Shown here one piece after another: positions 4,156 to 58,401 of a DNA stretch of 64,000 nucleotides. The number at the start of each line of letters is the position of its first letter. Within the stretch, counting starts at the first letter, position 1. This stretch comes from Deltaproteobacteria bacterium (lineage in GTDB: Bacteria > UBA10199 > JACPAL01 > JAHFST01). The notes below the pieces were generated by a model. It searched no databases. It was not told the origin of the DNA and saw nothing but the letters and a program-made list of their open reading frames with translations. Location of the stretch: assembly GCA_023265625.1 (NCBI GenBank), contig JAHFST010000007.1:62001-126000 (forward strand), given 5' to 3'. Made by a program: the position numbers and the translations under genes.

Positions 4156-5316
4156 TTAGATTTGCAAGATTCCTCTCCGTTGGGCGGCGGAGAGTTCCGA
4201 TCGGACGTATTTGGCCCCAGATAAATTGGTGTCTCCCAGCCGGGCGCCTTTCCATTGGACGCCGCGCAAGTCGGCATCCGCCAAGGAGGCGCCTCTGAGG
4301 TCGCATCCCCTAAGATCCGCGTCGCGCAAATCCGCTTTTTCGAGCTTGGCCTTTTTTAATGTGGACCCTGTCAGGACAGCCCCCACGAGGATGGCTTCGC
4401 TCAAGTGGGCCTCATCGAGGATCGCATTGACGAGAACCGCTTTGGTCAGGTCGGCCTTCCCGAGCAAGGCCTTGGTCAAAACAGCTCGTGATAGGACGGC
4501 CTCTGTTAAATCGATGCTCCCTAAAATGGCCTCGGTCAAATTGGCATCGGTGAGGATGGCCCGCCTCAGGGTGGTACCGTCGCCAAATCTTGCTTCGGCC
4601 AGTTCAGACCTGGCTAGATTAGCCTCAGCGAGGAAGCTCCCATAAAATGTGGCCTGAGACAATTTCGCGCGCGACAAATTGGTTTGGAAGAGGCGACTCC
4701 GGTCGAATGTGGCACCAGATGCGTCCATTTCCGCTAGGTTTTGTCCTTCCAAGTTCCGGTCGCTCAAATGAGGATGGGAAAATCTACACCTCGCTAAAAA
4801 ATGGGGATCTTGTCTCAAGACATCTGCAAAAATAGGGGTCGGGATGTTCCGGAAATCGAGACCCTGGGTGTCTACACGCGACGATCTGTGGTTATAGCCC
4901 AGCAACCAGAAGGCATCGGCTAGTGTTCCATTGGTGCCCCAACCATGTTCTGGAAACACCATCAGGGGGCCATTAAGACAAAAACAGACTGATTCGACAA
5001 AAGAGCCTAGTGTTGTTTGCCCCGGGTCAGCAAGGGCCTGGCCAAGGGTCAAAAGAAGCTGATCTTGGTTGACAAAAGAACTTCCATCTCCCAAGGCGCC
5101 GTTTGCAAAGCGGGAAATAGAACTCCGTAATTGCTGAAGTTTGATCTCTTGTCCTGGGACAAGACCCAAGGAACGGGGAAGGTGGCTTCTGACCTCTCGC
5201 TTTGCCGCTTCCTCAGATATCCCAGAGGTTATGACCTTCGCTCGGAGTAGGGCATATTGCAGGCGTGCCTGTCCTACTGTGTTCGTCCAATGATTAAAAT
5301 TAAGCATCTCGCCCAT
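4156..5316 (-). CDS. Pentapeptide-repeat protein with unknown N-terminal domain
   Basis: Residues from about 185 to 380 are a long run of pentapeptide repeats A(D/N)LxxA (for example ANLTEA, ADLTKA, ADLRDA, CDLRGA), which fold as a right-handed quadrilateral beta-helix. The first half (about 180 residues) is not repeat and I do not recognise it. No signal peptide is visible. It has its own sigma-28-like promoter ending only 10 nt before the ATG and no ribosome binding site. It is transcribed divergently from the orphan gene at 5410. Function unknown; other repeat proteins of this kind are DNA mimics or secreted effectors. Confidence 0.88.
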   Translation of the reverse strand: MGEMLNFNHWTNTVGQARLQYALLRAKVITSGISEEAAKREVRSHLPRSLGLVPGQEIKLQQLRSSISRFANGALGDGSSFVNQDQLLLTLGQALADPGQTTLGSFVESVCFCLNGPLMVFPEHGWGTNGTLADAFWLLGYNHRSSRVDTQGLDFRNIPTPIFADVLRQDPHFLARCRFSHPHLSDRNLEGQNLAEMDASGATFDRSRLFQTNLSRAKLSQATFYGSFLAEANLARSELAEARFGDGTTLRRAILTDANLTEAILGSIDLTEAVLSRAVLTKALLGKADLTKAVLVNAILDEAHLSEAILVGAVLTGSTLKKAKLEKADLRDADLRGCDLRGASLADADLRGVQWKGARLGDTNLSGAKYVRSELSAAQRRGILQI

Positions 5317-5326
5317 GACACAGACA

Positions 5327-5353
5327 TTATCGGCACGGCCACAAAATAGGTGC
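5327..5353 (-). promoter_or_regulatory. Sigma-28-like promoter of pentapeptide gene
   Basis: On the minus strand GCAC (5353-5350), 15-nt spacer, then a perfect GCCGATAA (5334-5327). The ATG of the pentapeptide gene is 10 nt downstream, predicting a near-leaderless transcript. It is back-to-back with the 5375-5401 promoter. Confidence 0.75.
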
Positions 5354-10814: not shown

Positions 10815-10841
10815 GCAACAAATCCGATCACTTCCCGATAA
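10815..10841 (+). promoter_or_regulatory. Sigma-28-like promoter of orphan gene 10866
   Basis: GCAA (10815-10818), 15-nt spacer, CCCGATAA (10834-10841; 7 of 8). Unlike most sites in the cluster it leaves a short leader with a GAAGGG ribosome binding site. Confidence 0.7.
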
Positions 10842-10865
10842 TGAGGTCTTAACGAAGGGATGGAC

Positions 10866-11780
10866 ATGCTCGGACTTAAAACCCTTGGCGATTGGTTAAT
10901 GGCATACCGCTATCCGGATGTTGCGGCGCTTCACTCCCTCTTGGTGGGGGCACGACCAACCACGGATGGGGACATTCTATTGTCAAAACCGTTGGGTGTG
11001 TATCCAAGGGAGTGTCTGAGCCAACAGGCCCCTACCATGATCCAGGATTTGTTTCGGTTGGTTGCGGCAGGCACCCAACCACCGGGGCGAATCGAGCCGG
11101 GCGCCTCGTTTCGTCATGGCGGTGCGGAGTTTCGTCCTTGGACCTGCCAAACTGCCGAGGGGTTTCTCCATGTGGCTGGTTATGCCACCAAGGATAGGGT
11201 CCATTGGACGCCTCGCCAAACCTGGCTTTACCCCGAGAAGGCGTTATGCGGCGTGCTGACCGGTCGATGGGGGGTCTTTCTCAAGGAAAGGACTTTTCCC
11301 CTCTCTTCCCGAAATATTGGCACGGCGGCCCATGTCTTCTTGCTGGAGTCGCGCTATGATTTTCCAGGAATTTCGGGGTCGCGGGAACGATTATCAGGCA
11401 TCGTGGCATCTCTCCTGGACACGATGGAACCGCACCAATCGGAGACTACGGTGCGGCGCAACAACGCCCCGCAACAATTCAACGGGCTCTTCCAAGAAAT
11501 GGCGATCGCCTGGCACCCCTTGCTTGGCGAAGACCTTGTGGTGGTGGCCGTTGAGCTGGGTGGGTTGGAATCCTTAGGCCAGGACCAGCGCGTCCAACCG
11601 GTCATTGTGGCCCTGTTAAATCGGAAAATGGATCGGAATCTGGCGCTACCGGAAAAGTTGGCCGAATGGGCCACGAGTCGAGGGAGGGGCAGCCTCGAAA
11701 AAATCCTTTGGGAAAGCCCACCCATGGCCACCGCCATCCGCGACCTGGTGATGCTTCCCTCCAGTAGTTGGGAGTCATGA
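10866..11780 (+). CDS. Orphan protein, sigma-28-like regulon
   Basis: A 304-residue protein of no family I recognise. There is no signal peptide or transmembrane helix. Composition is ordinary, with several Trp-containing strands (FRPWTCQTAEGFLHVAG, DRVHWTPRQTWLYP), suggesting a mixed alpha/beta N-terminal half. I chose ATG 10866 because GAAGGG at 10854-10859 is well spaced to it; ATG 10860 directly abuts that site. It is the first of four consecutive orphan genes on the same strand, each preceded by its own copy of the promoter. Confidence 0.8.
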   Translation: MLGLKTLGDWLMAYRYPDVAALHSLLVGARPTTDGDILLSKPLGVYPRECLSQQAPTMIQDLFRLVAAGTQPPGRIEPGASFRHGGAEFRPWTCQTAEGFLHVAGYATKDRVHWTPRQTWLYPEKALCGVLTGRWGVFLKERTFPLSSRNIGTAAHVFLLESRYDFPGISGSRERLSGIVASLLDTMEPHQSETTVRRNNAPQQFNGLFQEMAIAWHPLLGEDLVVVAVELGGLESLGQDQRVQPVIVALLNRKMDRNLALPEKLAEWATSRGRGSLEKILWESPPMATAIRDLVMLPSSSWES

Positions 11781-12939: not shown

Positions 12940-12966
12940 GCAACTTATCTAAATCGTTGCCGATAT
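12940..12966 (+). promoter_or_regulatory. Sigma-28-like promoter of orphan gene 12973
   Basis: GCAA (12940-12943), 15-nt spacer, GCCGATAT (12959-12966; 7 of 8). The ATG at 12973 is 6 nt downstream, at about the expected transcription start. Confidence 0.75.
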
Positions 12967-12972
12967 TGGAGT

Positions 12973-14127
12973 ATGGTGGTTTCATTTAATCAAGCGAGCG
13001 GTCGGGTTCCCCATGCAGCGGGCGGATTTGGCGCACCAGAGGGTGGAGCGGGGGCTGCTGGTGGGGCAGGTGGGTACAAACCGGTCTTTTCTCAGGAATG
13101 GCGCTACCTGCTCAACCTGGTTGACGCCTTCCGTCATGCGGTCTTCTCCCCGGATTTTCGCGCCGCTCTGGACCAGACGGTTTTTGCCTGTCGTGCGGCG
13201 GAGGCGGGGGTTTTGCCGCATCATCTTGGTGGCGAGGTGGAGGATAGCCTCAAATCGTATGCGACGACCCTGAAGACCGAGGCTAGCTATATCGATCCGA
13301 TGGATCGGCGCTACTTTTCCTCGGCCTTTGTCCTGCTGGGCGGACTTTTGTCCTGGTCAGGGGGAGCTCAGGCGCAGGTGATCCAATTGGGGTGCTTAAC
13401 CGCGGATTATTTTGCGGTGATTGACAAAGATTACGGGTGCGCTCCGAGGGAACGGTTTTCGCTCTTTGAGGAAGAAAGAAATTTGGCGCACATGTTGCTG
13501 GGGCTTGGCCCCCATCTTATTCCCACCGAGTTGCCGACGGCGGTGCGCATCCCGCTGGCGGCGGCCATCGGGCGGGTCGGACTTGCCAGTGCCGGCCAGT
13601 TCTGGTCGCAGTCAAACATTGAACTGCCCGGTTTGTCTGAGGCCTCCTGGGCCGTCTTTCCCGATTTGGAACCGAGGACCTTGTCGAGCCACCATCATGC
13701 CCTCAGGGAACCCTCCACGTATTTTTTCCCACTGTTGAATTGGCGACTGGGCGGTGAGGTGCAAGTGGATTACATGGTGGCCGCTTGCATGCAGGTGATC
13801 GGGGCGATGGCCACGACCGAGCCTTACACCCAATCTCGTCCCACCCGGTACTACTACCGCCATTATTTGGCTAATTACGACCTGCTCCGGTCGCATTCGG
13901 AAGGGGGAGGCGGGGTGGTGTTAGATCCAGAGCTGGATTCCCCCCTGCGACGTAGTTTCAAAAACTTTCTGGTGGCCGGAGCTGAGGACCGCTCCTGGCG
14001 CCGGTTGATGGGCAGGCTGGTCGATTGGGCCGAAGCAACGGCGGAGTACCAACCCTTGAGCCGTCAGCACCCAGGGCTGACTCCCTTCCTGCGCCAGTCC
14101 CTTGGGCCGGGGTTCATGAGCGCCTAA
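12973..14127 (+). CDS. Orphan protein, Gly-rich N-terminus, sigma-28-like regulon
   Basis: A 384-residue unknown protein. Residues about 9-35 are a low-complexity Gly/Ala linker (GGFGAPEGGAGAAGGAGG); the rest is predicted helical, with aromatic-rich segments near the C-terminus (RPTRYYYRHYLANYDLLR). A disordered N-terminus before a folded domain is common in exported effectors, but this is only suggestive. The start at ATG 12973 is set by the promoter; an in-frame TTG at 12925 would lie upstream of it. Confidence 0.8.
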   Translation: MVVSFNQASGRVPHAAGGFGAPEGGAGAAGGAGGYKPVFSQEWRYLLNLVDAFRHAVFSPDFRAALDQTVFACRAAEAGVLPHHLGGEVEDSLKSYATTLKTEASYIDPMDRRYFSSAFVLLGGLLSWSGGAQAQVIQLGCLTADYFAVIDKDYGCAPRERFSLFEEERNLAHMLLGLGPHLIPTELPTAVRIPLAAAIGRVGLASAGQFWSQSNIELPGLSEASWAVFPDLEPRTLSSHHHALREPSTYFFPLLNWRLGGEVQVDYMVAACMQVIGAMATTEPYTQSRPTRYYYRHYLANYDLLRSHSEGGGGVVLDPELDSPLRRSFKNFLVAGAEDRSWRRLMGRLVDWAEATAEYQPLSRQHPGLTPFLRQSLGPGFMSA

Positions 14128-20510: not shown

Positions 20511-20537
20511 GCAACTATTCCTCGTACGAGCCGATAA
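20511..20537 (+). promoter_or_regulatory. Sigma-28-like promoter of orphan gene 20544
   Basis: GCAA (20511-20514), 15-nt spacer, perfect GCCGATAA (20530-20537). The ATG at 20544 is 6 nt downstream. This is the best match in the window. Confidence 0.85.
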
Positions 20538-20543
20538 CAATGT

Positions 20544-22550
20544 ATGGTTTCGGCAATCCCTCCATACGTTCCATACGTTGACACCTTGGCCAGACTTAAC
20601 CCTCTTGCAAAAACAGTGGGATGCGATCACGAACCATTCGACGGCACATATCCTTTACGCCATCCTGTTCTTTATGAACGTCTTCTGGCCCTAAAGCCTG
20701 CGCTCACCGGACGCGAATCAAATATTGCCGTCCTTGGCAGTGGCCGATGCTATTACGAAAGCCCGAAGATTGACGCGAAGAAGCAGTTCTCTCCTTTTGC
20801 CATAGAACTGATTGCTCTGTTGCACGAGCTCTCAGCCCACATCACTTTTATTGATTCAGAACGCCCTGTACTGGAAACCGCGCTGGCCACTCCAGCGTTT
20901 TACCAGTTGTATTATGAGCAGCAGCATCTTGTAGGCACGCCTGTGCTTAAGGATATCTGTGAAGCACTTGCGACAGTCTTGCGATCCGTCGATGGTGCTC
21001 AGCTCTTAGCTACAGATCGACAATCGGATGAGTGCATCTTTGAGATAGATAAAAGCCGCTATGAGAGAGGAATCGTCCGGGGCTTCCAGGGCGACTTCAC
21101 CAGACTTGATTTTGGAGAACAGCAAGTCGATGTGATGATCGCCACGGTCTCTGCCATGTATGGTTTTTCAAGACTTCCGCCGGACAGGGTGGCAGGCCTC
21201 GCTTATGTTGCAAGGCTAATTGGAGCGCTTAAGATGGATGGAGGGGTCCTCTTCGTCTCCCCGATCGAATTTAATGCGCTCTGGGGTGCGGACCACAGAC
21301 AGGTCTTCAACCATGAAGAGCTAACAGCACGTCTCGAAACCTTGCGGGCAGAGCTGGAACCTCTTGTCGGTGGGACCTTGACCATGACGCATGTCGAGAG
21401 ACCTTATGGAAGCATTATTGAAGTCGTGAGAGGAGCAGTCTTTGGAGGCCAATATCCCGCAGCGTGGTCAAGACAAGATCAGATCGATGCCGAACTCCTT
21501 TTGTCGGGCCTTCGGACCACTCCTCTATTATTACGGCATGATGTCCTCGGCGTCTTGAGGGCACCTGCGAAACACGATGTCCGCTTCTTCAACAGCTTCC
21601 TGTCTTTCGACGAAGCCTTTCGAAGCCTGCCGGCAGGCGAGAAACACAAAGATCTCCGTGTGTCGACCGCTGATTACGAGCGGGAGATCGCAGGCTATGT
21701 CGCAAAGGCGGTGAGCGACGAGAAGGAGGGACTTCGGGATCTTGTATACAAGCTTCGCTACCTGGCCCCCTGTCTCCCGGATTTACTCCCGGCCCTGGAA
21801 TCCCTTGAAAAGCGACTGCGCCAACAGCCCGACGTTTGGGAAGGGCACTCATTGAAACAATCCGTGGAGCGAGCGGCACGTGACAGTGGAGAGCCGGTTG
21901 CTGTACGGGTGATTGCCGTCGAAGAGTTGTCCGAATTACCGTCTCGATCGCGTATCCTCGACGAAGATCAACTCAGAAAATGGAGAGACAGCAACCGGGA
22001 TTTCGCATTATACGCATTGCAGCGGCTCGACATCGAGGGTCGTGAACCTGCGTATCGACATGATGCTGAAACAATCTCATTTGTCCTGGATAGTCCCGGT
22101 CTGTCGCTCAGCGTACACCATGGCCCCTATGGCGGCAGCCATACCCGTGGCGTTGAGGTGCAGGATTTTCAATTGACGTACGATCCCTCTCATTTTTCCT
22201 CCCGGGATCTCATCCGAAGGACCTTGGGATCGAAGCCTTTGACTTATACTATGGCCGATCTTAGAAGTTTTAGCCAAAGCGAGCTTGTCAGTTCCGAGGG
22301 GACCTTTCTGCAACTTTATCTCAACGGTGTAACCGCGGAACAAAGGAAAAATAATGACGGTCCGTTATTGATGATCTCCAGGGATACAGGCAAGGTGATG
22401 TTCTTCCCGCCAGATTATAACGTGGATAGATGGAAACTTCTGTCAGGATTGACTGGACTCTGGACGGATATTCAGAACCTGAGCAACCACAGCAGCCGGA
22501 CAGGCACCTGGCAGGCGGACATGCCGTCGGGTCGGAAATCAAAGGGATGA
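20544..22550 (+). CDS. Large orphan protein with N-terminal methyltransferase-like domain
   Basis: A 668-residue protein. Residues about 60-300 look like a Rossmann-type class I methyltransferase: SNIAVLGSGRCYYESPKID (motif I, GxGxx-like), ITFIDSERPVLE (acidic end of strand 2), LDFGEQQVDVMIATVSAMYGF (motif IV region) and LKMDGGVLFVSPIEF (motif V/VI). The C-terminal ~370 residues are unrecognised and highly charged. The start is 6 nt after the -10 box without a ribosome binding site. It contains the 14-nt palindrome GCCTGCCGGCAGGC in frame near 21625. Confidence 0.82.
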   Translation: MVSAIPPYVPYVDTLARLNPLAKTVGCDHEPFDGTYPLRHPVLYERLLALKPALTGRESNIAVLGSGRCYYESPKIDAKKQFSPFAIELIALLHELSAHITFIDSERPVLETALATPAFYQLYYEQQHLVGTPVLKDICEALATVLRSVDGAQLLATDRQSDECIFEIDKSRYERGIVRGFQGDFTRLDFGEQQVDVMIATVSAMYGFSRLPPDRVAGLAYVARLIGALKMDGGVLFVSPIEFNALWGADHRQVFNHEELTARLETLRAELEPLVGGTLTMTHVERPYGSIIEVVRGAVFGGQYPAAWSRQDQIDAELLLSGLRTTPLLLRHDVLGVLRAPAKHDVRFFNSFLSFDEAFRSLPAGEKHKDLRVSTADYEREIAGYVAKAVSDEKEGLRDLVYKLRYLAPCLPDLLPALESLEKRLRQQPDVWEGHSLKQSVERAARDSGEPVAVRVIAVEELSELPSRSRILDEDQLRKWRDSNRDFALYALQRLDIEGREPAYRHDAETISFVLDSPGLSLSVHHGPYGGSHTRGVEVQDFQLTYDPSHFSSRDLIRRTLGSKPLTYTMADLRSFSQSELVSSEGTFLQLYLNGVTAEQRKNNDGPLLMISRDTGKVMFFPPDYNVDRWKLLSGLTGLWTDIQNLSNHSSRTGTWQADMPSGRKSKG

Positions 22551-34631: not shown

Positions 34632-35885
34632 TTACAACGGCTTGAAATCAAAAATGAACTCCCTGCCTCTTTTGGACATTTGCAATAGTCCCTTGTCGCA
34701 CAAATCAGTCAGGTCCGAGCGTCCCGTTTCGTAGACCACTTTCGTGATCTTCAAATATTTTTTAATGGTAATCGGAAGAAGCTTATTGCGGAAATGGAGC
34801 TGAAACAACTTTTCCTGCCGTGGGTTTAGTGCAATATTCTGGCTCCTTATTTTGTTGAACCAGTCAGAGAGGGTCTCTTCATTCCTTTTCTCAGATTCCA
34901 CGACAGAAATGGCCTCCAGCACCATTTTCACTGAGTACAGGAGGAAGTAGGTTAAATCGGAATCATATTCTTCGACATTCAAAATCGACTGGTAATAACT
35001 TTTCCGATTGGTGGCAATCGCCTTCGAGATGGAAAAGAATTTCATAAAATCATAATCGTGCTTAAGCAGGTAATAGTACATGAGGGCCCGTGCCGTTCGA
35101 CCGTTGCCGTCGAAGAATGGATGCACATAGACGGTATAAAAATGAATGATAGAGGCCTTGATCACGGGATGGAGAAAAAGGAATTCAACCCCCTCCAGGT
35201 TGCTCCAGTTGTATAAATCCTGCATCCTGTTCGGCACTTCAGAGGCCGGTGGTGCGGTGTAATCAACCTTCTGTTTGGCCTCGTCCCACACCACCACCTG
35301 ATCGTTTCGGTATTGTCCCGAAAAGGGTTCGTCTTCAGGATCGAGCGTTGCTTCGGTTACGATCTTGTGCAGTTCGCAAACAAATTCATGATCCAGCGGC
35401 CTCGGCAAACTTTTTAGCAGGAATTCCATCGTCCGAAAATTATTCAGAACCATCCGCTCGCTGCGATCCTTGGGTCTTTCATGATTGCGAATCATCTCAT
35501 GGGCCCTTTTGTGGGTCGTCTTGGCCCCTTCGATCCACGAAGAGTAGTAGGCTTCATCAATCAAGTTTCTGACCAGGAGATCCCCAAGAACCGAAGGGGT
35601 TGTGACCTCCTGCCACCGCGCCCTTTGGATGTCGATTTCATGCAGCATCTTTTCAATGCGGGGGATGTTCCAATACCAAAAGGATCGTCCCTGTTGATCG
35701 AGCAGATTGTAAAGGAGTTCTGACTTCCTGGAACGAATCGCCAGGATAAACTCCAGTAATTTTTCGTCCTTAAACTCATTAGGAATTCGGTATTTTATCT
35801 CACGAGGAGAATAGTAGTAGTCATTCATCGTTTCAGTAAAAACGAATCTTTTCAGGTTATTATCTGTGGTAATTTCTTTTTCCAT
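34632..35885 (-). CDS. Fic-family protein with N-terminal inhibitory motif
   Basis: A 417-residue Fic (AMPylase-type) protein. The active-site loop HPFFDGNGRTAR is complete, with His, Asn and both Arg in place. The class II auto-inhibitory helix is seen as SSWIEGAKTT around residue 115. A C-terminal winged-helix-like region (ITIKKYLKITKVVYETGRSDLTDLCDKGLL) suggests DNA binding. The upstream region holds three phased ATACTAAT repeats. AT-richer than its neighbours, consistent with acquisition. Confidence 0.93.
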   Translation of the reverse strand: MEKEITTDNNLKRFVFTETMNDYYYSPREIKYRIPNEFKDEKLLEFILAIRSRKSELLYNLLDQQGRSFWYWNIPRIEKMLHEIDIQRARWQEVTTPSVLGDLLVRNLIDEAYYSSWIEGAKTTHKRAHEMIRNHERPKDRSERMVLNNFRTMEFLLKSLPRPLDHEFVCELHKIVTEATLDPEDEPFSGQYRNDQVVVWDEAKQKVDYTAPPASEVPNRMQDLYNWSNLEGVEFLFLHPVIKASIIHFYTVYVHPFFDGNGRTARALMYYYLLKHDYDFMKFFSISKAIATNRKSYYQSILNVEEYDSDLTYFLLYSVKMVLEAISVVESEKRNEETLSDWFNKIRSQNIALNPRQEKLFQLHFRNKLLPITIKKYLKITKVVYETGRSDLTDLCDKGLLQMSKRGREFIFDFKPL

Positions 35886-35982: not shown

Positions 35983-36009
35983 ACAACTTTTCTCGTTCAG
36001 CCCCGATAA
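35983..36009 (+). promoter_or_regulatory. Sigma-28-like promoter of orphan gene 36045
   Basis: ACAA (35983-35986) followed by CTTTTCT, 15-nt spacer, CCCGATAA (36002-36009; 7 of 8). A 35-nt leader with GAAAGAGG precedes the ATG. Confidence 0.75.
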
Positions 36010-36044: not shown

Positions 36045-37748
36045 ATGATGATTTTAGCCATTCGATCAGCAGGACCGCGGTTGTTAGCCAGCGCATATGA
36101 GCAGCCAAGGCTTATTAGGATGCTTGTTTCTGGCCAACCGGAAGATCCTGATGGGTCAGCCCCTCAGGGGCATGGGGGTGGCGCTCCGTTTGTGGTTGAC
36201 CCAGATGCAGCCGCTATCGTGAAGGGGTCTGGGGTGCTTGGGGCATTTCCAATCGCAGTGATTGATTCGCATACGGAAGTCATTCCGGGTAAAATTTTAG
36301 CCGACTTCGAGATCGAAGCCTGGCGTCAGTCCAAGGGAGAGGTTTGGGCGGAATGGGTGGAATCCTTTGATAACCAAGATCCCTGTCAAGCTTTGCTGGA
36401 TCGGGCGGCAGCTTATCACTGTTCGCATGATTTGATCGCCCGTTTTTTTCAATTGCTCAAAAATGATTGGCGGTTGCCAACTCCCTTTTGGTTTTGGAAA
36501 CTGTCCCAATGGCTGTACAAGGCCATGTTGGCCGATATCCCAGTAAAAGCCTTCGAAGAACATGCGAAGATCTGCATGGAAGACGCCCAAAAAGAAGATC
36601 CCAGTCCACCGGAGGGAGGGGATCGATCATCGTCAATCGTTCGGGCAAAAGCCCTGCTGGGAAAAATTGCAGAACCGATCCAGGTGGCCTGCACTTACGA
36701 TGGACCTTGGAGGCTTAATTTTCAATCAGTGGTCCATTACAGCCGGTTAAAGCTACTGCGCATTACCTCATCGGAGTCAGTCGATCGCGCCGCGGTTGCT
36801 AGGCCCAGAGAGGCCGATGAAGCGTTTCGGCTTGTCCCTCCCGATTTTAGCCACCTCGGTGAAACGGCTTTTTCTTACGTCGCCCCTCCCCGTCCCGGAG
36901 AACCTAAGTCCGTCACCAAAATGAGGGTATACATTGAATGGATCGAGGGCCATGCCGGACAGATCTTGCGGGAGTGCTTCGTATCCGCCTTAACTAAAGG
37001 CGATAGAATGATCGGGGCAGAATCGACAGACCCCTTCGCATCCCCCTTACACATGTTGGCCGCAGGTATTGAGCAAAAACTGGGTAGGAACATCCCCTAT
37101 TGGGTAGGCGAGCTTTGTATCAACCACGGGTTAACAGCCTGGCAACTCGTGACGGCCTACGATGAAGCGGCTAACGAACGGGACCAGCTCCCTGAATTGG
37201 ATCAAGATCGCCATTCAACAGGTCCCGAGTGGACCAGACTTTGGACCTGGGATTTCACCCTGGGTGGCCTGCAGCAAAATATCCATGAAATCTGCGCAAG
37301 TGCAATCGCCTTCCAGGCCGAGATAGAATATACGCGAGACTTGTTGCCTTGGATTATTTCGGGCAAGGCCCATCCGGCCTTGGTTTCCTATATTCGCAGG
37401 ATGATTAACAAGGATGACTATCGACAACATCCCCGTGACGCCGGGATACTTTTGGACAACATACGTTTGGCAGTCAACTATCTGGGCCGCCTGATCGAGG
37501 TGGAAGAGAGAGACACGGAGACATCACTCTTGCAGCATTTTGATCGGATCTTCAGTCTCGACTTAAAAGCGCAGGTGAGACCGCACTTGTTAAACACCCT
37601 GAGCGCGAGTTCTGCCAAGGAATTTAGAAAGGGTTGGGGATCCGTGCTAGCGCATATACACTCGGACCGCACGATGGATGAACAGGCCGAAATATTTTTA
37701 AGAGAATTTATCCGGTTCGCATTGATCCGTAAAAAGTCTTTCGAATAA
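36045..37748 (+). CDS. Large orphan protein, sigma-28-like regulon
   Basis: A 567-residue protein I cannot place. Largely alpha-helical by pattern, no signal peptide or membrane segment. A Gly/Pro-rich loop (GSAPQGHGGGAPFVVDPD) lies around residues 35-55. The C-terminal 130 residues are long amphipathic helices (YLGRLIEVEERDTETSLLQH). The next regulon gene (37802) follows 53 bp downstream with its own promoter. Confidence 0.83.
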   Translation: MMILAIRSAGPRLLASAYEQPRLIRMLVSGQPEDPDGSAPQGHGGGAPFVVDPDAAAIVKGSGVLGAFPIAVIDSHTEVIPGKILADFEIEAWRQSKGEVWAEWVESFDNQDPCQALLDRAAAYHCSHDLIARFFQLLKNDWRLPTPFWFWKLSQWLYKAMLADIPVKAFEEHAKICMEDAQKEDPSPPEGGDRSSSIVRAKALLGKIAEPIQVACTYDGPWRLNFQSVVHYSRLKLLRITSSESVDRAAVARPREADEAFRLVPPDFSHLGETAFSYVAPPRPGEPKSVTKMRVYIEWIEGHAGQILRECFVSALTKGDRMIGAESTDPFASPLHMLAAGIEQKLGRNIPYWVGELCINHGLTAWQLVTAYDEAANERDQLPELDQDRHSTGPEWTRLWTWDFTLGGLQQNIHEICASAIAFQAEIEYTRDLLPWIISGKAHPALVSYIRRMINKDDYRQHPRDAGILLDNIRLAVNYLGRLIEVEERDTETSLLQHFDRIFSLDLKAQVRPHLLNTLSASSAKEFRKGWGSVLAHIHSDRTMDEQAEIFLREFIRFALIRKKSFE

Positions 37749-37768: not shown

Positions 37769-37795
37769 GCAACCTTTGAACTCGGGTTGCGATAT
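37769..37795 (+). promoter_or_regulatory. Sigma-28-like promoter of MBL-PP2C gene
   Basis: GCAA (37769-37772) followed by CCTTTGA, 15-nt spacer, TGCGATAT (37788-37795; 5 of 8). The ATG at 37802 is 6 nt downstream without a ribosome binding site. Confidence 0.65.
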
Positions 37796-37801
37796 CACCT
37801 C

Positions 37802-39277
37802 ATGGTCCCCGCAACCCTGCCGAGCACGCTCGAGGTTTTTTCAGTCCTGGGGAAACCCCGTGTGGTCCGGGGGGCGGAGACCTTTCATGGTGCGGCGGAG
37901 ATAGTGGCCTTGGGCTCGCGGCCCACGATGTGGTTGGAGTCCCGCTGCTTTTTGCTCAAGGGGGTTCATGGCAGGAACGTCTTAATCAATACGGGGCCCA
38001 ATCTTTACCCGGGGGAGCGATCCAGTCTCGTTTTCCAACTGGGCCATAGATTCGGCATCTCTCCCGATCAAGTTGATCTCGTGGTTTTGAGCGACCTCAC
38101 CGCACCCCATGCGGGTGGGGTCGGCCTTTTTCCGAATGCGCGTTACCTGGCCAGTGCGGAAAGCCTTGCGGCCAACTATGACTCGCAGACGGTGCAATTT
38201 TTACAAACCTCAGGTCGCCTGACCCTCTTGGAAACGGGGGCAAGGCATGCCGATGTCCTGTCTCCGGAGATTGAAATCTTGTGGAGCCATGGCGTCACCC
38301 CCGGCCAGATCCATCCGATACTCCCCTCGGCCCATGGGAGTTTGATCGTGGGAGGGTCGCTCTTTCCGGGTTATACACTGGCGCCTGAATTCGGCTATGC
38401 GCACGCGGCGGATTTAGACAAGATGGCGGCAGAGCGTCGGCACTTCTTGTCCCTCGCCCTGGAACGAGGGGCCTGGCTCGCTCATTCGATGGACCCGGTG
38501 GTGGAGGGTGTTCGCCCGTGGGGATCGGGACACAATATCACCATGCACAAGGCGCTGGATCTTCATTGGCCCCTTCCCCTGTGGCCGATTGAGTCGGGGA
38601 CGTTCGATACGCCCCATTTCGCAGGGAGTTGGGCCCTAGGTCAGGGAGATGAAAAAAAGGAACAGCAAGATACGGTCAGGACCCATTTTTGTGGAGGAGA
38701 TGAGTTCTACCTCTTGGCCGATGGGCACCGGGCCTGGGGTGCAGAGGTTAGCCATTGGGCCGTCACCCTTTTCCCCGAGCAGTGGCAAGCCGTGAGGCCT
38801 GTCGGGCAGGGCAAAATGGTCGATGCTATCCGATTGGCGGTCAAAGAACTAGATAGGCAAATTATTGATCATTTGGAAAGAGCTGATGGCGCCGATGGGG
38901 GGACTACCTTTCTCGGTGTAGTGGCCAGTGAGCAGGGGGCCTGCCTCGTCCATGTGGGAGACAGTCGTGCCTACCAGGTGAGTCCTCGAGATGGGACGAT
39001 CCGGCAATTGACCGAAGATCACCGGGTAGATAATTATCTAACCAGCTCCCTGGGGAATTCCCGTCCCCTGAAACACGTCGACATTCATCCACTCGATGAA
39101 ATCCCATCAGGGGATTTTCTGGTCCTGGTCTCGGACGGGTTCGAGGCCATTCCAGAAGTGTGCCTTCGAGATCTTGTGTTACAGACACCCGCGGAGAGCG
39201 CCGCTGTCGCGATGATCCAGTCGATGTATGGCTACTCGCCGGACAATGTCTCGGTGATTGTACTGAGGGAAAAATAA
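37802..39277 (+). CDS. Fusion of degenerate MBL-fold domain and PP2C-type phosphatase
   Basis: A 491-residue two-domain protein. Residues about 40-220 follow the metallo-beta-lactamase fold (NVLINTGPNLYPG, VDLVVLSDLTAPHAGGVGLFP, SAHGSLIVGGSLFPG), but the HxHxDH zinc motif is reduced to SDLTAPHAGG, so hydrolase activity is doubtful. Residues about 295-490 are a PPM/PP2C serine/threonine phosphatase: LLADGHRAWG, GGTTFLGVVAS, HVGDSRAYQV, LVLVSDGFEAI, YSPDNVSVIVL. The metal Asp residues in DGH, SDG and DN are present. It could dephosphorylate a regulator in the same regulon. Leaderless start at 37802. Confidence 0.85.
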   Translation: MVPATLPSTLEVFSVLGKPRVVRGAETFHGAAEIVALGSRPTMWLESRCFLLKGVHGRNVLINTGPNLYPGERSSLVFQLGHRFGISPDQVDLVVLSDLTAPHAGGVGLFPNARYLASAESLAANYDSQTVQFLQTSGRLTLLETGARHADVLSPEIEILWSHGVTPGQIHPILPSAHGSLIVGGSLFPGYTLAPEFGYAHAADLDKMAAERRHFLSLALERGAWLAHSMDPVVEGVRPWGSGHNITMHKALDLHWPLPLWPIESGTFDTPHFAGSWALGQGDEKKEQQDTVRTHFCGGDEFYLLADGHRAWGAEVSHWAVTLFPEQWQAVRPVGQGKMVDAIRLAVKELDRQIIDHLERADGADGGTTFLGVVASEQGACLVHVGDSRAYQVSPRDGTIRQLTEDHRVDNYLTSSLGNSRPLKHVDIHPLDEIPSGDFLVLVSDGFEAIPEVCLRDLVLQTPAESAAVAMIQSMYGYSPDNVSVIVLREK

Positions 39278-39338: not shown

Positions 39339-39629
39339 ATGGACCACGTAATGACCCTCAAAATGCCTGGTAATTTGTTGGAACAGTTAGAGGCTCGTTC
39401 TCGTTCGGAGGGGTGTTCCAAGGGGGCGTTGTTGCGGGAAGTGTTGCGTCGTTACCTCGAGGGGGGGATGGACATGCAAAATCAGGTGGCCAGGATTACG
39501 GAGACGCTGCGGGAGGGTAAGAACCCTCGGTTGCGGTTTGATTGGGAGTTGCTCCGTACTCAATGTGAAGCGCCTGCCGGGATGACCTTGGAAGAGGAAA
39601 TGTGCGCTCATCGACGGAGACGGTTGTGA
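39339..39629 (+). CDS. Ribbon-helix-helix-type antitoxin
   Basis: A 96-residue protein whose N-terminal 45 residues (MTLKMPGNLLEQLEARSRSE then GCSKGALLREVLRRYLEG) form a MetJ/Arc ribbon-helix-helix. The C-terminal tail (NPRLRFDWELLRTQCEAPAGMT) probably binds the toxin. It overlaps the PIN gene by 28 nt. Confidence 0.82.
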   Translation: MDHVMTLKMPGNLLEQLEARSRSEGCSKGALLREVLRRYLEGGMDMQNQVARITETLREGKNPRLRFDWELLRTQCEAPAGMTLEEEMCAHRRRRL

Positions 39630-40072
39630 GGAAGGTCTTTATTGATTCCGATATCTTTGTCTTGGATCTGCGTTATCCCCGTGATGTCCGATATCAGGTG
39701 AATCAAAAATTTCTTGGATTGGTCCGCACCGGACGTATCAAAGGGGCCACTTCGATTTTTAATCTCCTAGAGGTCTGCGGGATTCTCTCCTTTAACCTCT
39801 CGGCCTCAGATTTAGTGGGTCTTTACGCCGATTTTTGTCGTCGTTACCGGATTAAACTCCTGTTTCCCGCCGATGCCACGGGTCAGTTGCAATACCCGAT
39901 TGAAACAATCTTTGGTCAGATTCAGAAGAAACAAGGACTGGGTGACGCCCAAGTGGGCTATGTTGCGAGCCGATTCCGGGAACATCTCTCTCATTTTGTC
40001 TCATGGAATGCCCCCCACTTCGAAGGACGGGTGGACCTCCCGGCGTTGCGACCTGATGAATTTATGTCGTGA
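39602..40072 (+). CDS. PIN-domain toxin
   Basis: A 156-residue PIN-type ribonuclease. The first acidic residue is in KVFIDSDIFVLDL, and NLLEVCGIL supplies the conserved Glu in the second segment. Later acidic residues are in QGLGDAQVGYVASRF. The start is GTG at 39602 (GGAAGAGG upstream) or GTG at 39626 overlapping the antitoxin stop. Its end overlaps the convergent GltB-like gene by 11 nt. Confidence 0.82.
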   Translation: MRSSTETVVRKVFIDSDIFVLDLRYPRDVRYQVNQKFLGLVRTGRIKGATSIFNLLEVCGILSFNLSASDLVGLYADFCRRYRIKLLFPADATGQLQYPIETIFGQIQKKQGLGDAQVGYVASRFREHLSHFVSWNAPHFEGRVDLPALRPDEFMS

Positions 40073-56569: not shown

Positions 56570-56596
56570 ACAACCTTTTCCAGTGTTAGCCGATGG
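56570..56596 (+). promoter_or_regulatory. Sigma-28-like promoter of orphan gene 56617
   Basis: ACAA (56570-56573) followed by CCTTTTC, 15-nt spacer, GCCGATGG (56589-56596; 6 of 8). AAAGGAG then precedes ATG 56617. Confidence 0.7.
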
Positions 56597-56616
56597 CAAG
56601 CCAAAGGAGATACAAT

Positions 56617-58401
56617 ATGAGGGGGCAGATGAATTGTACGGACAGGGGAATTGGATTTTCCGGATTGGTACCGGTCGTGGATTTAAGAACCGGTCTCTTG
56701 CCGACACGGGCATTAAATTCGGTGACGGCCCTGGGAGGGGAAAATCTGGGTGCTATCCTCAGTGGAGGGAATGGGGCGGCCGCTTCGTCGGGGGAGGTGC
56801 TGCGCGAGACCCCGGTCGATTCGGGGTTGTTTCGGCTTTGGAGCGAGCGCCATCCGTGGGAATTACTCGCGGCCGGTTTGATGGGAGCGAGGGATGACTC
56901 CCCGGAGCGGGGTGGCGCGGCCAGTTCTGGTGGGGGGACGGATGCTGTACCTGTGTTGGAGATGGTACGGCAGATAGCTGTCCAGGAGGGCCGGGTCGAG
57001 TTGGAGCGTGCCGGTGATCTGATGACCGTCAAAATGGGGGCGGTGACCGTGGCCCGGCTGAGCGACTGGTATCGGGTCCTGATCTGCGCCTATGTCCGAC
57101 GGTGTCTGGGTAGCGACCCTCAAAGATTGGCCAATGCCAATTCCCATCGGTTTCGGATCATCTTCGGGCGCGGCGAGGCCGCCAGCCTGCCGGGGCCGCG
57201 ACCGGAGGCGGAGGCACTGGTCCGTTTTATTCAAAAAGAACCGAGATCGGCACACGACCTCCTGGTCGGGTTGAGTCATGCCAATCGGCGCGAGTCGGGC
57301 ACGTCCCGTCTGGAGAAGTACGCCGCTCTGGCGGAGGGGTTGGCCGATATCCAGGCCTTATTGGTCAGTAGGAACGCGGCCGTGTCGCGACCCGAGGGGG
57401 TTGCTGCGATTGATCCCTCACCTGTGTCGGTATCTGCCCGTCAAGCGGTGGAGGTGGTGGCTTGGAGCGGAGCCCTTGGAGAGTCTTTGATGTCTCCCAT
57501 GTGGAAGCATGATGGCGACCGTGTGAATGAGACCACGGGGCCGCGGATCCACGGTCGAATCGATCAGATGGCCAGAGTGATGCGGCAACGCGGCTATTCG
57601 CAGGGAGAGGTGGAGGCCTTTGGCAAAAAGCTGGTCGAGCTGGCGTGGCGCCATGTCCCGACGCTTTGGCGAGGAAAGTCGGCCCTGACGTTTCTGGGGT
57701 GGGTATGCGAGCTGGAGGAGTTACAAGGAGACATGATGGATAGTGACCTGGTGGGGAGGGAAGGACTGAAAGGCGTTGCAACCCTTTCCCTGTACCGAGT
57801 CCTGGATAAAATGCGTCGCCACGGGTCGGTTGGTTCAAACTTCTACTTTGTGTCCTTCGGTCGTGATTTTATCGACCTCGCCTCCTCCCTTGCCCCCAGT
57901 CCAGCCGACGGACGCGCCTTGGCAGAGCAGCACCGCGGGGGCGAGATGCAGGAGCTCATGGGAATGGCCCTGTTGCGGGGGCTTTTTGACAATGCCCTTC
58001 TGAAACGTGACGGGGAGACACTTCCCTTGCTGGTGCGACAGGCCTTTGTTCGGTATCTCGCCTTGACCCTCATTGAGAACGGGGCTTGGCCCATTTTTTA
58101 CGGTCAATTTTCCTCATTCCTTTCGGAGCAAAAAATTTGGTGGGGGTCCATTTGGCTGGGGTGGGGCAGGGCCAACCTCTCCCGTTTTTACGAAGGGTTG
58201 CTCGGAGCGCCGCTGGATACGATCTTTGAGGATCTATCCAGGGCAACGGTCCATGATATCTTGGTCGCCTCCCTCCCCGAGGTGCGCCGGCTCCTATCGG
58301 TTCCGGATGACGAGGTCAACCATGACTCCCTGTTACAAGTGGAACGGGCCTTGAGAGCTCATCTGACCGAGCAGTCCCGTTTGGTGTGTGGGTCCGGGTA
58401 A
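56617..58401 (+). CDS. Large orphan protein, sigma-28-like regulon
   Basis: A 594-residue unknown protein. The N-terminus is Gly/Ala-rich (AILSGGNGAAASSG, GGAASSGGGTD), then mainly helical, with tryptophan-rich segments near the C-terminus (IWWGSIWLGWGRANLSRF). No signal peptide. Start ATG 56617 has AAAGGAG 7 nt upstream; an in-frame ATG at 56593 overlaps the -10 box and is rejected. Confidence 0.83.
   Translation: MRGQMNCTDRGIGFSGLVPVVDLRTGLLPTRALNSVTALGGENLGAILSGGNGAAASSGEVLRETPVDSGLFRLWSERHPWELLAAGLMGARDDSPERGGAASSGGGTDAVPVLEMVRQIAVQEGRVELERAGDLMTVKMGAVTVARLSDWYRVLICAYVRRCLGSDPQRLANANSHRFRIIFGRGEAASLPGPRPEAEALVRFIQKEPRSAHDLLVGLSHANRRESGTSRLEKYAALAEGLADIQALLVSRNAAVSRPEGVAAIDPSPVSVSARQAVEVVAWSGALGESLMSPMWKHDGDRVNETTGPRIHGRIDQMARVMRQRGYSQGEVEAFGKKLVELAWRHVPTLWRGKSALTFLGWVCELEELQGDMMDSDLVGREGLKGVATLSLYRVLDKMRRHGSVGSNFYFVSFGRDFIDLASSLAPSPADGRALAEQHRGGEMQELMGMALLRGLFDNALLKRDGETLPLLVRQAFVRYLALTLIENGAWPIFYGQFSSFLSEQKIWWGSIWLGWGRANLSRFYEGLLGAPLDTIFEDLSRATVHDILVASLPEVRRLLSVPDDEVNHDSLLQVERALRAHLTEQSRLVCGSG

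What the first reader, a model, noticed from the sequence alone, without database searches (positions are those of the whole stretch)
37802..39277. Fusion of an inactive-looking MBL domain to a PP2C phosphatase inside the regulon
The N-terminal half has the MBL fold but SDLTAPHAGG in place of HxHxDH, so it may be a ligand- or protein-binding module. The C-terminal half keeps PPM motifs (DGH, GDSRAY, SDG, DN). PP2C phosphatases control alternative sigma factors by partner switching in other bacteria. One encoded within the regulon could be its feedback regulator.
Basis: partly seen in the sequence, partly recalled or inferred. Interest (0 to 1): 0.78.

Follow-up and report, generated by a model that had tools for sequence, protein, structure and literature searches.

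The report
Dead lactamase-fold fused to PP2C phosphatase
This gene of an uncultured bacterium joins a protein-phosphatase enzyme to a relative of metal-dependent lactonases that has lost its metal site, and it is preceded by a promoter shared with about 50 mostly unknown genes whose likely sigma factor is encoded inside a type III secretion (protein-injection) machine, so it is more likely an exported phosphatase than a self-regulator of the sigma factor.

Summary
ATG 37802 opens a 491-aa protein with a metallo-beta-lactamase (MBL) domain (aa ~45-238) that keeps 1 of 7 metal ligands, and a PP2C/PPM domain (aa ~282-489) that keeps its metal aspartates but has a shortened flap. No full-length homologue was found in the collections searched.

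The 'regulon' is real and larger than the window. Promoter GCAAC(T/C)TTT-N-GCCGATAA occurs 52 times in this genome (control 0) and is enriched across the class. Its -10 half is in register with the sigma-28 (FliA/WhiG) consensus. A FliA-like sigma, 55-79% identical across the class, sits inside a non-flagellar type III secretion (T3SS) operon beside SctJ, K, L and N. It is the only FliA-type sigma detected in most class genomes that carry the promoter.

Two other PP2C proteins, with a different N-terminal domain, also carry the promoter.

Best reading: one of three modular phosphatases of a T3SS-linked regulon, probably exported as an effector, the dead MBL domain serving as a targeting module. 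Activity and export are inferred, not tested; the mixed regulon leaves an intracellular role open.

The parts
37769..37794 (+). Promoter GCAACCTTTGAACTCGGGTTGCGATA (sigma-28-like -10; -35 GCAACCTTT); predicted transcript start ~37800, i.e. nearly leaderless
   Evidence: commonest spacing; ATG 7 nt downstream, as in 22 of 57 sites with ATG 7-9 nt away
37802..39277 (+). 491-aa pseudo-MBL - PP2C fusion protein
37934..38515 (+). Metallo-beta-lactamase-fold domain (aa 45-238), related to AHL lactonases/organophosphorus hydrolases, 1 of 7 metal ligands kept
38645..39268 (+). PPM/PP2C domain (aa 282-489), metal aspartates D290, D307, D445, D481 present, flap shortened
35983..36008 (+). Variant regulon promoter ACAACTTTTCTCGTTCAGCCCCGATA upstream of the neighbouring gene
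36045..37748 (+). 567-aa orphan protein, neighbouring regulon member with its own promoter
   Evidence: (no Pfam family)
20511..22550 (+). Second exact regulon promoter (20511-20536) and 668-aa orphan gene 20544-22550
12940..14127 (+). Variant regulon promoter and 384-aa orphan gene 12973-14127
10815..11780 (+). Variant regulon promoter and 306-aa orphan gene 10860-11780
4156..5353 (-). Variant regulon promoter (5353-5328) and pentapeptide-repeat protein gene 5316-4156
56570..58401 (+). Weak variant promoter (CGATG) and 594-602-aa orphan gene

Best explanation
The gene is a member of a class-wide regulon read, most likely, by a FliA/WhiG-type sigma factor encoded within a non-flagellar type III secretion operon. 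Its product is most likely an active, metal-dependent Ser/Thr phosphatase of the PPM family, joined to a metallo-beta-lactamase-fold domain that has lost its catalytic metals and now serves as a binding or targeting module. The most likely role is as an exported T3SS-linked effector that removes phosphate from proteins of a target (prey or host) cell. Shown by computation: both folds, the lost and kept metal ligands, the promoter, its genome-wide and class-wide enrichment, and the sigma gene's place in the T3SS operon. Inferred: that this sigma reads the promoter, catalysis, export, the target, and the binding role of the MBL domain.
For: Promoter: 52 sites in the genome against 0 in the reversed-pattern control; 3-100 in the 45 other order and class genomes, 0-3 outside the class. 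Unconstrained positions reproduce GCCGATAA, the sigma-28 -10. Sigma: one ortholog at 55-79% identity in most class genomes, next to SctJ/K/L/N in the named loci; most of those genomes show no second FliA-type hit. The same -35/-10 pair with 2 nt more spacing lies inside the T3SS operons: 29 sense against 1 antisense in 25 loci. Regulon products: 29 of 39 scanned have no Pfam family above cut-off, most lack a Sec-like N-terminus, and their N-termini are depleted in charged residues (0.147 vs 0.204, p 8e-4). Modularity: three PP2C proteins with the promoter, two sharing an orphan ~420-aa N-domain that also occurs in another regulon protein without PP2C. Intact PPM ligands and dead MBL site.
Against: No secretion data. 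Ser/Thr enrichment typical of T3SS signals is absent (p 0.79), and few residues precede the MBL fold. The regulon also holds lipoproteins and enzyme-like proteins (PutA-like, radical SAM, aminotransferase, LCM methyltransferase), so membership does not prove export. The genome also has a flagellum-type cluster with its own FliA, which could share the promoter. Among class genomes with the promoter, G021 and G004 lack both this sigma and the T3SS ATPase, and G022 shows only a flagellar-type sigma; these are draft assemblies, so gaps are possible.
Confidence: 0.5

Rival explanations
1. Intracellular phosphatase of the T3SS itself: it dephosphorylates a T3SS or regulon component, for example a partner of the FHA-domain ring protein SctD, as PppA does for type VI secretion.
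For: SctD of this operon carries an FHA domain; an ordinary Stp-type PP2C lies about 7 kb from a second SctV gene (C10:69249 and C10:76446); Foldseek lists T6SS PppA among the PP2C matches.
Against: The ordinary Stp-type PP2C shows no such promoter in the 120 nt upstream and already fits that role; three divergent PP2Cs with unusual N-domains are more than a housekeeping pathway needs.
Confidence: 0.2
2. Feedback regulator of the regulon's sigma by partner switching.
For: PP2C domain with metal ligands, gene inside the regulon.
Against: No RsbW-type kinase above cut-off, almost no STAS proteins; likely cognate sigma is FliA-type in a T3SS operon; PPM is of Stp/PphA type.
Confidence: 0.05
3. 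The regulon belongs to the flagellar FliA (C21) and is a motility or surface-contact regulon; the phosphatase is an intracellular or surface-linked signalling enzyme.
For: The -10 matches FliA; the genome has a FliA-like sigma 2.3 kb from an FlhA homologue; G022 has 46 sites and only that kind of sigma.
Against: Most class genomes with many sites show no flagellar-type FliA hit but do have the T3SS sigma; the motif pair recurs inside T3SS operons.
Confidence: 0.15
4. Pseudo-phosphatase: the shortened flap and dead MBL leave a pure binding protein.
For: Flap deletion; MBL site lost.
Against: All PPM metal aspartates and the GDSR motif are kept.
Confidence: 0.1

Closest known systems
Stp/PphA-type PPM (PP2C) phosphatases, e.g. 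tPphA (PDB 2j82), PstP, Stp1
   Same: Fold, metal aspartates and GDSR/SDG/DN motifs
   Different: Shortened flap; fused behind a dead MBL domain; promoter of a T3SS-linked regulon
AHL lactonase / organophosphorus hydrolase branch of the MBL superfamily (AidB, AttM, AiiA, MPH; PDB 4le6, 5hif)
   Same: Sequence and fold along most of the domain
   Different: 1 of 7 metal ligands kept, so no binuclear site and no expected lactonase activity
FliA/WhiG sigma-28 regulons
   Same: Sigma family (NCBIfam FliA_WhiG E 9e-43, below its cut-off) and -10 GCCGATAA in register
   Different: -35 is GCAAC(T/C)TTT, not TAAAGTTT (recalled consensus); sigma gene in a T3SS operon; many mRNAs predicted nearly leaderless; targets mostly orphan proteins
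Needleless T3SS* of Myxococcus xanthus (PMC12075869)
   Same: Myxococcota T3SS loci hold a ~42% identical sigma beside SctJ/SctN; the M. xanthus T3SS* is needed for prey lysis
   Different: No promoter enrichment genome-wide in the two Archangium genomes tested; the term sigma factor does not occur in that paper
RsbU/RsbP/SpoIIE partner-switching phosphatases
   Same: PPM superfamily
   Different: No RsbW or matching STAS set; no SpoIIE-family match for this protein

Membership tests
PPM/PP2C Ser/Thr phosphatase | PPM fold | tested here: met
   PF13672 E 1e-12 over cut-off; Foldseek tPphA E 4.5e-13
PPM/PP2C Ser/Thr phosphatase | Metal-binding aspartates (motifs QD, DGH, SDG, DN) | tested here: met
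   D290, D307, D445, D481
PPM/PP2C Ser/Thr phosphatase | Phosphatase activity | not testable with these tools
   needs an assay
Metallo-beta-lactamase superfamily (fold) | MBL homology along the domain | tested here: met
   Alignment 122 vs shuffled max 52; NCBIfam lactonase models E 3e-6; Foldseek 5hif E 4.5e-8
Metallo-beta-lactamase enzyme | HxHxDH and the three further metal ligands | tested here: not met
   1 of 7 kept
Partner-switching system | RsbW-type kinase and cognate STAS protein | tested here: not met
T3SS-sigma regulon (as defined here) | GCAAC-N16-CGATA promoter just upstream | tested here: met
   37769-37794
T3SS-sigma regulon (as defined here) | Transcription by the T3SS-encoded sigma | not testable with these tools
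   association only
Type III secreted effector | N-terminal secretion signal | tested here: inconclusive
   Charged residues depleted, no Ser/Thr enrichment in the regulon set
Type III secreted effector | Secretion or translocation shown | not testable with these tools
   uncultured organism, no secretion data

The most novel reading that the evidence does not exclude
An entire class of uncultured bacteria uses a sigma-28-type factor encoded inside a non-flagellar T3SS to switch on tens of orphan, nearly leaderless genes, a hidden effector repertoire. Within it, PP2C phosphatases are re-used with exchangeable N-terminal modules, here a dead lactonase-fold domain turned into a targeting device.
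Probability: 0.45. Interest if true: 0.82.

Novelty: new variant of a known kind. Interest (0 to 1): 0.6.

Why it matters
The promoter gives a sequence-only handle on the output genes linked to a T3SS in a class of uncultured bacteria for which I found no paper on T3SS substrates. If the sigma and promoter are matched in vitro, candidate effectors could be listed for every genome of the class. The fusion itself is a clear example of a metallo-enzyme fold stripped of its metals and kept beside a working-looking phosphatase.

Tried and rejected
Full-length homologues: none in 46 class genomes, 14 further genomes, genome contigs, plasmids or viral contigs; the genome contigs and viral scans with a single protein reach close relatives only. 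Partner switching: rejected. Alignment A3 put the MBL rows onto the PPM domain and was discarded; A2 was used. AlphaFold2 of the orphan N-domain shared by the other two PP2Cs gave pLDDT 36 and is uninformative. Small ORF upstream of the sigma as FlgM: no Pfam match. Promoter transfer to Archangium: not enriched genome-wide. 20 of the 24 motif hits lie in Myxococcota T3SS loci, but several lie at the conserved 3' end of the sigma gene and may be coding conservation. No paper in the library joins UBA10199 (the group name I recall for these MAGs) with T3SS.

Full report
OBSERVATION. The frame 37802-39277 (+) is open and encodes 491 aa. The C-terminal half is a PPM/PP2C domain: Pfam PP2C_2 E 1e-12 over its cut-off, best solved relatives tPphA and other Stp-type enzymes, and Foldseek tPphA E 4.5e-13 for the AlphaFold2 model. 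The metal aspartates D290, D307, D445 and D481 and the GDSR motif are present; the flap between TEDH and SDG is much shorter than in ordinary PP2Cs. The N-terminal half is a metallo-beta-lactamase fold. Pfam alone is weak (E 0.005, below cut-off), but NCBIfam lactonase models give E 3e-6 and 2e-5 (below their own cut-offs), and alignment with an intact MBL protein from a distant genome (L007) scores 122 against a maximum of 52 in 300 shuffles. Foldseek adds 5hif, E 4.5e-8, though the MBL part of the model has only moderate confidence. The ligands H-x-H-x-D-H / H / D / H read D98, T100, P102, H103 / V165 / S186 / M230: one of seven is kept.

THE REGULON. The gene is preceded by GCAACCTTTGAACTCGGGTTGCGATA at 37769-37794, with ATG 7 nt further on. 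A second exact copy stands before the 668-aa orphan gene at 20544, and variants stand before 4156(-), 10860, 12973, 36045 and 56593. With the pattern GCAACNNTT-N11-13-CGATA the genome holds 52 sites against 0 in the reversed-pattern control. In the 45 other listed genomes of the order or class the counts run from 3 to 100, with low controls, while genomes outside the class have 0-3. Aligning 53 sites of the commonest spacing shows G, C and A enriched at positions the pattern left free, giving GCCGATAA, the sigma-28 -10 consensus (the FliA consensus TAAAGTTT-N11-GCCGATAA is recalled, not tested). In 22 of 57 sites the ATG lies 7-9 nt after CGATA, so these mRNAs are probably almost leaderless.

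WHICH SIGMA. The genome has seven Sigma70_r2 proteins. One, FliA/WhiG-like (NCBIfam FliA_WhiG E 9e-43, below that model's cut-off), lies at C10:162693-163520 in an operon with SctJ (YscJ), a FliG_C/SctK-like protein, SctL and SctN, with an FHA-domain SctD upstream. Its ortholog is found at 55-79% identity in most class genomes and next to SctJ/K/L/N in the named MAG loci, mostly recorded as 'Deltaproteobacteria bacterium'. I recall this group as GTDB UBA10199; that name was not tested. More distant homologues (~42-46%) sit in T3SS loci of Myxococcota and Acidobacteria. A separate FliA-like sigma lies 2.3 kb from an FlhA homologue at C21 and is taken to be flagellar. Most class genomes with many promoters show the T3SS sigma and no flagellar-type one. 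Exceptions: G021 and G004 lack both the sigma and the T3SS ATPase; G022 shows only a flagellar-type sigma. Inside the T3SS operons the same -35/-10 pair recurs with two more nucleotides of spacing: 29 sense against 1 antisense in 25 named loci, and one copy lies between SctJ and the small ORFs before the sigma in this genome. The sigma-promoter match is thus a strong association, not a demonstration.

WHAT THE REGULON ENCODES. Of 39 regulon proteins scanned, 29 have no Pfam family above cut-off (my count). The rest are the three PP2Cs, a pentapeptide-repeat protein, an LCM-type methyltransferase, a CheR-type methyltransferase, a class V aminotransferase, a radical SAM protein, a PutA-like protein and an HTH protein. 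Some unscanned members are lipoproteins or have signal-like N-termini. The N-terminal 25 residues are poorer in charged residues than those of 68 control ORFs (0.147 vs 0.204, p 8e-4) but not richer in Ser/Thr (p 0.79). The controls were long ORFs, not curated genes.

THE OTHER PHOSPHATASES. Two more PP2C proteins of this genome (L101:2877-4865 and L102:2892-4940) carry variants of the promoter. They share a ~420-aa N-terminal domain with each other and with a third regulon protein that has no PP2C. That domain matches nothing in the PDB by sequence and could not be modelled. The ordinary Stp-type PP2C at C10:69249 shows no such promoter in the 120 nt upstream. So one catalytic domain is combined with two different N-terminal modules in the same regulon.

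MECHANISM. Partner switching lacks its parts: no RsbW-type kinase above cut-off and only two STAS proteins. The best-supported reading is an output protein of a T3SS-linked regulon: an active phosphatase whose dead MBL domain binds or targets. Export into another cell is the likeliest role but rests on operon context, promoter, orphan modular architecture and lack of a Sec-type signal, not on a secretion test. An intracellular role in T3SS phospho-signalling (SctD has an FHA domain) is the main rival. The M. xanthus 'needleless' T3SS*, needed for prey lysis, is the nearest studied system (PMC12075869); the term sigma factor does not occur in that paper.

VERDICT. Observation confirmed; interpretation partly supported. 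Interest 0.6, mainly for the class-wide T3SS-linked promoter and the modular re-use of PP2C; the fusion itself is a new variant of known folds.

Noticed in passing
L103:1661-2014 (G000:C10:162160-162513): A 117-aa ORF with a Ser/Pro-rich N-terminus lies just upstream of the T3SS sigma; ORFs of similar size and place but poorly conserved sequence recur in many class genomes. Possible FlgM-like secreted anti-sigma; no Pfam match.
   Followed up: partly
L103:1202-1229 and T3SS loci L105-L163: Second promoter form with the same -35 and -10 but 28-nt length in T3SS operons (29 sense, 1 antisense in 25 named loci); the regulon genes use the 26-nt form.
   Followed up: partly
L101:2877-4865, L102:2892-4940, L099:106-2565: A ~420-aa orphan domain shared by two regulon PP2C proteins and one 820-aa regulon protein without PP2C.
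   Followed up: partly
window 39339-40072: A CopG-type ribbon-helix-helix gene followed by a 156-aa ORF without a Pfam family that looks PIN-like by eye: a possible toxin-antitoxin pair directly downstream.
   Followed up: no
window 34632-35885 (-): Fic/DOC-family protein gene (Pfam Fic E 2e-21) near the regulon genes.
   Followed up: no
G000:C10:76446, C16:21534, C21:61997: Three FHIPEP (SctV/FlhA) proteins: one near a FliA-like sigma (C21) and two others, so more than one type III export gate.
   Followed up: partly
G021, G004, G022: Class or order genomes with the promoter (42, 11 and 46 sites) but no detectable T3SS sigma; the first two also lack the T3SS ATPase.
   Followed up: partly
G053:C3:272539-276224: In a distant genome an intact MBL gene lies about 3 kb from a PP2C-like frame; not examined for a link.
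   Followed up: no
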